DNA of 64,000 nt from Flavobacteriia bacterium (GTDB taxonomy: Bacteria > Bacteroidota > Bacteroidia > Flavobacteriales_D > Crocinitomicaceae): assembly GCA_026391005.1 (NCBI GenBank), contig JAPLEV010000052.1, positions 1-64,000 of the forward strand. Direction: 5' to 3'. The notes below the pieces were generated by a model. That model had not been told where the DNA came from. It did no database searches and worked only from the letters and a program-made list of their open reading frames with translations. Below, one piece after another: positions 35,704 to 36,972 of this stretch. The number at the start of each line of letters is the position of its first letter. The first letter of the stretch is position 1. Position numbers and translations under genes: made by a program.

Positions 35704-35822
35704 ATGAACATATAAGTAGCTAATGTTCATAATATCGTAAAATAATGGACACGTTATAGTATTTTGTATAAAAAATGGACATATATTTACATCATGTTCA
35801 TTAAAAGTAAAAAAAATGGACA
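35704..35822. promoter_or_regulatory. Operator-like array upstream of Fic gene (two ~49-bp units)
   Basis: ATGAACA(35704)-N13-TGTTCAT(35724)-N14-ATGGACA(35745); ATGGACA(35775)-N13-TGTTCAT(35795)-N14-ATGGACA(35816). Confidence 0.65.
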
Positions 35823-35841
35823 TGTAATTTAAATTAAAAAA

Positions 35842-36972
35842 ATGTACGACAGAAAAAAACCTTATAATCTACTGCCTGATTTACCTCCTAGTAAAGAAAT
35901 TATTGACGTAGAAGTATTAATGAAATGGGGTACAGCATCAAGAAATTTAGCAGAGTTAAATAAAAATATTCTTCGCGAGTTAAATAAAAATATTCTTCGC
36001 ATCCCCAATCCAAGTATGTTGGTGAATACAATTGGGCTACGCGAAGCTCAAACATCAACGGCTATCGAAAACATTTTTACTACCGAGGAAGAATTGTACA
36101 AAGCTATTTCATCTAATTTGAAAGAAGAAAATGTAGACACATCAACAAAAGAAGTATTGAATTATCGTGAAGCGCTTTGGGGGGGATTTAATTTACTTAA
36201 AAGCGAAGGAGATTTGTCAGAACAAGCAATTATATCAATATTTCAAAAAGTAAAAAATACTACACAGAGCTATCGTCCTCGGCAATCGCTTACCGTAATC
36301 AGAAGAGGAAATAGTGAATTCAAACCAGGAGAAGTAATTTACACACCGCCAAGAGGTGAAGGAATAATTGAAAGTAAAATTCGAAATTTATTATCCTTTT
36401 TGCAAGATGATAATGGAATAGACCCTTTACTGAAAATGGCGATAGCTCACTATCAATTTGAGGCAATTCACCCATTTACAGATGGAAATGGTAGAACGGG
36501 AAGGATTTTAAACCTTTTGTATTTAGTGGAACAGCAACTTATTTCACATCCTGTTTTATATTTAAGTCGTTATATTCTTCAACACAAGGACGAATATTAC
36601 CACCTCTTAACAGCGGTTACCCAAAGAGGTTTGTGGAAACCTTGGTTAATATATATGATGGAAGCGGTAGAACAAACCTCCATATATACCAATCAAATGA
36701 TTGATGAGATTATACTACAACAAGCATCAACCTTGCAATTTGCTAAAAGTAAACTCAAATGGTACACAAGTGAATTTAATGATCTGTTATTTTCACAACC
36801 CTACTTCAAACAGAAAAAAATGGGAGAAGTATTAGGAGTAACTAGCAGAACAACGCTTGCGAAATATGCCGAGCAACTTGTATCAATTGGAATTGTATCA
36901 AAGAAATACGAGGGTAAAGAAGTTTTCTATATCAATGACGATTTACTAAGAATTATTAGTGATGCGAGTTAG
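35842..36972 (+). CDS. Fic family protein (predicted AMPylase-type) with C-terminal winged-HTH-like region
   Basis: 'AIHPFTDGNGRTGRILNLLYL' Fic motif; 'STAIENIF' inhibitory-helix-like [ST]xxxE[NG]; C-term 'MGEVLGVTSRTTLAKYAEQLVSIGIVSKKYEGKEVFYIND'. Confidence 0.93.
   Translation: MYDRKKPYNLLPDLPPSKEIIDVEVLMKWGTASRNLAELNKNILRELNKNILRIPNPSMLVNTIGLREAQTSTAIENIFTTEEELYKAISSNLKEENVDTSTKEVLNYREALWGGFNLLKSEGDLSEQAIISIFQKVKNTTQSYRPRQSLTVIRRGNSEFKPGEVIYTPPRGEGIIESKIRNLLSFLQDDNGIDPLLKMAIAHYQFEAIHPFTDGNGRTGRILNLLYLVEQQLISHPVLYLSRYILQHKDEYYHLLTAVTQRGLWKPWLIYMMEAVEQTSIYTNQMIDEIILQQASTLQFAKSKLKWYTSEFNDLLFSQPYFKQKKMGEVLGVTSRTTLAKYAEQLVSIGIVSKKYEGKEVFYINDDLLRIISDAS
35953..36000 (+). repeat. Perfect 24-bp in-frame tandem duplication inside Fic gene (ELNKNILR x2)
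   Basis: gagttaaataaaaatattcttcgc at 35953-35976 and 35977-36000. Confidence 0.95.

What the first reader, a model, noticed from the sequence alone, without database searches (positions are those of the whole stretch)
35704..35841. Duplicated palindromic operator array directly upstream of a Fic gene
Seen directly: the forward heptamer ATGRACA starts at 35704, 35745, 35775 and 35816 (spacings 41-30-41), and its reverse complement TGTTCAT starts at 35724 and 35795. This gives two units with identical geometry, ATGRACA-N13-TGTTCAT-N14-ATGGACA. The two ~50-bp units match at about 36 of 50 positions by eye and are offset by 71 bp. The last heptamer ends 19 nt before the ATG. Inference: this is a repressor binding array. 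The Fic protein has a C-terminal winged-HTH-like segment (GEVLGVTSRTTLAKYAEQLVSIGIVSKKYEGKEVFYI), so it may autoregulate, linking AMPylation state to its own transcription.
Basis: partly seen in the sequence, partly recalled or inferred. Interest (0 to 1): 0.65.

Follow-up and report, generated by a model that had tools for sequence, protein, structure and literature searches.

The report
Self-control switch of a Fic toxin gene
In front of a bacterial gene for a Fic enzyme (a likely anti-phage toxin) lies a ruler-like set of repeated DNA words that the enzyme's own DNA-binding tail very probably reads to hold its own gene down, and relatives in distant bacteria keep the same spacing but use different words that change together with the reading part of the protein.

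Summary
Six ATGRACA/TGTTCAT heptamers lie at the stated positions, in two copies of F-N13-R-N14-F offset by 71 bp. None of 200 shuffles of the window put more than 3 in 119 bp. The gene encodes a class II, SoFic-type Fic protein (PADLOC SoFic E=3e-98) with a C-terminal winged helix.

The array belongs to the fic gene, not to the locus: orthologues in unrelated neighbourhoods keep it. In clade A a Bacteroidota -7 box (TATATTTG) sits inside the promoter-proximal F-R pair. More distant SoFic genes (other Bacteroidota, Gammaproteobacteria including E. coli, a Fusobacteriota plasmid) keep the same geometry (about 20, 30, 41, 70 bp) with different words. The word follows the recognition helix: SRTT with TGRACA, KRQTAS with CGACAT, ENTAR with ACATTAA/ACCTTAA, EGTAR with ACATCAA, EVTAR with ACACTAA. 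In an unbiased scan of 312 protein columns the best-associated residue is T337, at the start of the recognition helix.

Best explanation: Fic dimers bind their own promoter and repress it, as published for the distant Fic protein CccR. New are the phased multi-site array, its family-wide spread and the apparent recognition code. Binding, sign of regulation and any AMPylation link remain untested.

The parts
35704..35710 (+). half-site F1, ATGAACA (unit 1)
35724..35730 (-). half-site R1, TGTTCAT (unit 1)
35745..35751 (+). half-site F2, ATGGACA (unit 1)
35775..35781 (+). half-site F3, ATGGACA (unit 2, promoter-proximal)
   Evidence: anchored consensus over 39 clade-A loci
35782..35789 (+). promoter -7-like box TATATTTA (orthologues TATATTTG, Bacteroidota consensus TAnnTTTG), between F3 and R3
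   Evidence: F / -7 / R order in 26 of 43 clade-A loci
35795..35801 (-). half-site R3, TGTTCAT (unit 2)
35816..35822 (+). half-site F4, ATGGACA (unit 2)
35842..36972 (+). SoFic-type Fic AMP-transferase gene, 376 aa: Fic_N + Fic + SoFic-like_C (wHTH)
   Evidence: PF13784, PF02661, PF21248; PADLOC SoFic 2.9e-98; SoFic 3zcn TM 0.90
36055..36072 (+). class II inhibitory helix motif STAIEN, (S/T)xxxE(G/N)
   Evidence: translation; E76 and N77 invariant
36469..36504 (+). intact Fic motif HPFTDGNGRTGR
   Evidence: most positions invariant
36847..36885 (+). recognition helix of the wHTH (residues 336-348); T337 is the residue best associated with operator word
   Evidence: AlphaFold2 secondary structure; column scan
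36898..36933 (+). wing (strands 353-357 and 360-364); E360 and G358 rank 3rd and 12th in the column scan

Best explanation
The array is the operator of the fic gene and is read by the Fic protein's own C-terminal winged helix. Fic dimerises through its N-terminal helices (known for SoFic/EcSofic). A dimer places its two wHTH domains on an F-R pair whose half-sites are about two helical turns apart (20 bp). Several dimers line up on phased sites: F-R, then F with a degenerate partner, repeated every ~70 bp. The promoter-proximal F-R pair encloses the -7 box, so binding should exclude RNA polymerase and repress fic. This would keep a self-toxic AMP-transferase at low level without a separate antitoxin. 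Shown here by computation: array, geometry, conservation, covariation with the recognition helix, overlap with the -7 box. Inferred: binding, dimer-per-pair stoichiometry, cooperativity, repression.
For: (1) Array exact and unique in its genome. (2) Clade-A orthologues (55-96% identity) keep it although only L001 and L003 share the window's neighbours. (3) Word-independent test: exact 7-mer inverted repeats at start offset 20 (19-23 in clade B) and direct repeats at 30, 40/41 and 70/71 peak in clade A, other Bacteroidota and Gammaproteobacteria alike, against a null maximum of 4-5 loci. A template score beats 30 shuffles in 117/196 SoFic upstreams, against 4/198 random window segments and 0/20 genes of another Fic subfamily. 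(4) Words follow the recognition helix. T337, the second residue of the modelled recognition helix, ranks 1st of 312 columns, wing E360 3rd. Within the E-x-TAR clade: N with ATT/CTT 20/20, G with ATC 3/3, V with ACT 3/3, K with CGT 4/4 (two assigned by hand), A with ATC 3 and ACT 1, with 9-10 changes on a tree built without the wHTH. (5) The -7 box lies between F3 and R3. (6) Precedent: CccR represses its own promoter through a palindrome bound by its HTH.
Against: No binding or expression data exist for this protein, and SoFic DNA binding was reported as not demonstrated as of 2023. The window's own -7 box is imperfect (TATATTTA) and its -33 element is weak. CccR's operator has a wider spacing (10-bp arms, N26). 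Phylogenetically independent word/residue contrasts are few: 3 on well-supported branches, all concordant, sign test p=0.25. Two EKTAR words were assigned by hand. The column scan uses non-independent pairs, so its ranks are not p-values.
Confidence: 0.85

Rival explanations
1. The Fic wHTH binds the array but as an activator or as an enzyme-control platform (DNA-induced dimerisation changing AMPylation/deAMPylation), not mainly as an autorepressor.
For: CbFic2, another Fic with a C-terminal wHTH, dimerises on DNA and switches from AMPylation to deAMPylation. Upstream units far from the promoter could serve as a platform.
Against: In most clade-A loci the proximal pair encloses the -7 box, a repressor position; CccR represses. 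CbFic2 was tested with random DNA only.
Confidence: 0.1
2. Another cellular transcription factor reads the array and controls fic.
For: Binding by Fic itself is not shown here; cross-regulation of defence genes by separate regulators is common.
Against: The word changes with the fic recognition helix across phyla while neighbours differ; the array has no other copy in the genome, so a separate regulator would have a single target and would have to co-evolve with Fic residue 337.
Confidence: 0.03
3. RNA-level element: the palindromes fold in the mRNA leader and control translation.
For: The strand folds better than shuffles (z -2.5, 5 of 200 shuffles as good).
Against: If the -7 box is used, F1, R1, F2 and F3 lie upstream of the transcript; direct repeats at 30/41/71 bp are not explained by hairpins; palindromic DNA sites trivially give hairpins; no Rfam match.
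Confidence: 0.02

Closest known systems
CccR of Yersinia pseudotuberculosis (class II Fic + C-terminal HTH; PMC9755527)
   Same: Fic toxin whose own C-terminal HTH binds palindromic repeats at its promoter and represses it (reporter, EMSA, footprint); class II inhibitory helix; N-terminal helix dimer.
   Different: The paper puts it at only 29% identity over 45% coverage to SoFic; one pair of 10-bp repeats with N26, not a phased F-R-F array repeated every ~70 bp; T6SS effector. A dimeric HTH-HTH distance of 70.2 A is reported, close to the 68 A expected for a 20-bp half-site spacing here.
SoFic / Sofic anti-phage Fic proteins (Shewanella 3EQX/3ZCN; EcSofic, PMC12249575)
   Same: Same family by sequence, domains and fold; the E. 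coli orthologues examined also carry an array.
   Different: Publications found describe structure, dimerisation, toxicity and a proposed downstream antitoxin AS1; none found describes the operator. DNA binding of SoFic was stated to be undemonstrated.
CbFic2 of Coxiella (DUF4172-Fic-wHTH; PMC10628234)
   Same: Fic enzyme with wHTH that binds DNA and dimerises on it.
   Different: Reported with random DNA; no specific operator known.
Autoregulated toxin-antitoxin operons with multiple operators (e.g. AbiE, phd/doc)
   Same: Toxin level held down by a DNA-binding protein on repeated sites at its own promoter.
   Different: There the repressor is the antitoxin; here enzyme and repressor would be one polypeptide.

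Membership tests
SoFic/Sofic family (Fic_N + Fic + SoFic-like_C) | All three Pfam domains above gathering score, in order | tested here: met
   PADLOC SoFic 2.9e-98
SoFic/Sofic family (Fic_N + Fic + SoFic-like_C) | Intact catalytic motif HxFx(D/E)GNGRxxR and class II inhibitory motif (S/T)xxxE(G/N) | tested here: met
   HPFTDGNGRTGR and STAIEN, conserved
SoFic/Sofic family (Fic_N + Fic + SoFic-like_C) | Fold of SoFic | tested here: met
   AlphaFold2 pLDDT 87.9; 3zcn TM 0.90/0.91
SoFic/Sofic family (Fic_N + Fic + SoFic-like_C) | Anti-phage activity | not testable with these tools
   needs a phage challenge experiment
CccR-type autorepressing Fic | Inverted repeats at own promoter overlapping promoter boxes | tested here: met
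CccR-type autorepressing Fic | Specific binding of own HTH to the repeats | not testable with these tools
   indirect support: word/recognition-helix covariation
CccR-type autorepressing Fic | Repression of own promoter | not testable with these tools
   needs a reporter experiment
CccR-type autorepressing Fic | CccR operator layout (10-bp arms, N26) | tested here: not met
   here 7-8-bp arms, N13, repeated; it works like CccR but is not the same operator type

The most novel reading that the evidence does not exclude
SoFic-type proteins are single-gene toxin-repressors with a lineage-specific, co-evolving recognition code, in which occupancy of a phased operator array both silences the gene and holds the enzyme in an inactive DNA-bound dimer form. 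Loss of DNA binding during phage attack (DNA breakdown, modification or titration) would then release both transcription and toxicity.
Probability: 0.15. Interest if true: 0.85.

Novelty: new variant of a known kind. Interest (0 to 1): 0.62.

Why it matters
How class II Fic proteins are regulated is described as nearly unknown in the CccR paper, and how Sofic toxicity is controlled as elusive in the Sofic paper. Here the answer may be written in the DNA: a family-wide operator with constant geometry and a changing word, whose word appears predictable from a few residues of the protein. That makes autorepression of an anti-phage toxin directly testable in E. coli (269 of 5,426 complete genomes carry a close orthologue), and offers a natural set of matched repressor/operator pairs.

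Tried and rejected
RNA element: no Rfam match; hairpins follow trivially from palindromes and most of the array would lie upstream of the transcription start. A regulator tied to neighbouring genes: rejected because the array follows fic through unrelated neighbourhoods. F-R pair alone as a diagnostic: rejected, since ATGRACA-N12..14-TGTYCAT turns up in other genomes of the family away from any fic gene and the reversed control pattern also does. Orthogonality of co-resident paralogues: 0 of 23 same-genome pairs share a word class, but permutation gives 1.6 on average, P=0.18, so not shown. A first relaxed genome scan used the wrong spacing (N14-16) and was repeated with N12-14. A shorter Fic subfamily used as control turned out to have its own wHTH and a different repeat, so it is a control for the geometry, not for the absence of an operator.

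Full report
Observation. The heptamer itself is common, but six within 119 bp is not: the rest of the window never has more than one per 119 bp and 200 shuffles reach at most three. The pair ATGRACA-N12..14-TGTYCAT occurs only here, twice, in the 2.64-Mb genome (relaxed form). The pair on its own does occur by chance in other genomes, so it is the array that is diagnostic.

The gene. The downstream gene encodes a 376-aa protein with Fic_N, Fic and SoFic-like_C domains. It is PADLOC SoFic, nearest in sequence to solved Sofic and SoFic structures, with a model that matches SoFic 3zcn at TM 0.90. Catalytic motif HPFTDGNGRTGR and class II inhibitory motif STAIEN are intact.

The array goes with fic. 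Eighty orthologous loci were fetched. Orthologues of 55-96% identity carry ATGRACA-type arrays, although apart from L001 and L003 none of the clade-A loci checked has the window's neighbours. In a genome of the same genus (L174) the syntenic fic gene has been cut out: unit 1 remains intact, unit 2 is broken at the deletion joint.

Same ruler, different words. More distant SoFic genes lack ATGRACA but carry other repeated words in the same place: ACATTAA, ACATCAA, ACACTAA, ACCGTA, GCACAA, TGTCAA, CGACAT, GRGTAA and others. A test blind to the word found inverted repeats at start offset 20 (19-23 in clade B) and direct repeats at 30, 40/41 and 70/71 bp in three groups, far above a shuffle maximum of 4-5 loci. 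A template score beats 30 shuffles in 117 of 196 upstreams, against 4 of 198 random segments and 0 of 20 genes of another Fic subfamily. The geometry also holds on a Fusobacteriota plasmid (ATGGTAA at -108/-39, TTACCAT at -88/-19). In E. coli two lineages 83% identical over the search query both carry CGACAT/AAACAT arrays.

The protein's own helix reads the word. Recognition helices sort with words. In a scan of all 312 usable protein columns, corrected for overall identity, T337 is first (partial r 0.33, next 0.23), wing residues E360 and G358 3rd and 12th, R336 15th. The model puts the recognition helix at 336-348 and the wing at 353-364. In the E-x-TAR clade, x=N goes with ATT/CTT words in 20 of 20, G with ATC, V with ACT, K with CGT (two of four assigned by hand), A with ATC (3) or ACT (1). 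A tree from residues 1-300 only gives 9 changes of residue and 10 of word, and all 3 independent well-supported contrasts agree. Numbers of independent changes are small, so this is strong pattern evidence rather than a formal proof.

Promoter. In 26 of 43 clade-A loci a TAnnTTT(G/A) box lies between the proximal F and R half-sites, and the anchored consensus of 39 loci reads AAAAAaTGGACATATATTTGC.aTaTGTCCA with a weak TTG 20 bp upstream. That is the Bacteroidota promoter form (TTTG, about 20 bp, TAnnTTTG; general knowledge). A dimer on this pair should block polymerase.

Mechanism and comparison. Published Fic-wHTH proteins give the two halves of the model: CccR represses its own promoter through its HTH, and CbFic2 dimerises on DNA and changes enzymatic mode. 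EcSofic is toxic and dimeric. No paper found describes the SoFic operator (the library holds open-licence papers only). I therefore file this as a SoFic family member whose operator works like that of CccR but is of a new layout: phased, multi-copy and family-wide, with a co-evolving word.

Limits. Everything here is sequence evidence.

Noticed in passing
window 35953-36000: Exact 24-bp tandem duplication inside the fic gene gives an 8-residue duplication (ELNKNILR twice), absent from the 21 aligned orthologues; the 96%-identical L001 protein is 8 residues shorter (368 aa). It may alter the region after the N-terminal dimer helix.
   Followed up: partly
L174 2470-2660 (G395:C37): Same-genus genome in which fic has been deleted from the syntenic locus, leaving an orphan intact unit 1 and a deletion joint inside unit 2.
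   Followed up: yes
L254-L273, just upstream of and at the fic start: A second Fic subfamily (~320 aa, helix SATASRDLK) carries a different compact repeat, TTTGATAGTATCAAATGATAGTATCA, at the start codon in most of 20 genomes: apparently a second Fic operator type with a constant word.
   Followed up: partly
L280, L279 (E. coli SK1144, EC554): 269 of 5,426 complete E. coli genomes carry a close SoFic orthologue; the two examined carry CGACAT/AAACAT arrays with ~70-bp period; in EC554 a further Fic family gene lies directly downstream.
   Followed up: partly
same-genome SoFic paralogues, e.g. L149/L230/L234: In 21 genomes with two or three SoFic paralogues no pair shares an operator word class (0 of 23 pairs), suggestive of insulation but not significant (P=0.18).
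   Followed up: partly
L275 (Acetobacter plasmid) downstream of fic: The SoFic-type gene on a conjugative plasmid lies directly before a DNA methyltransferase gene.
   Followed up: no
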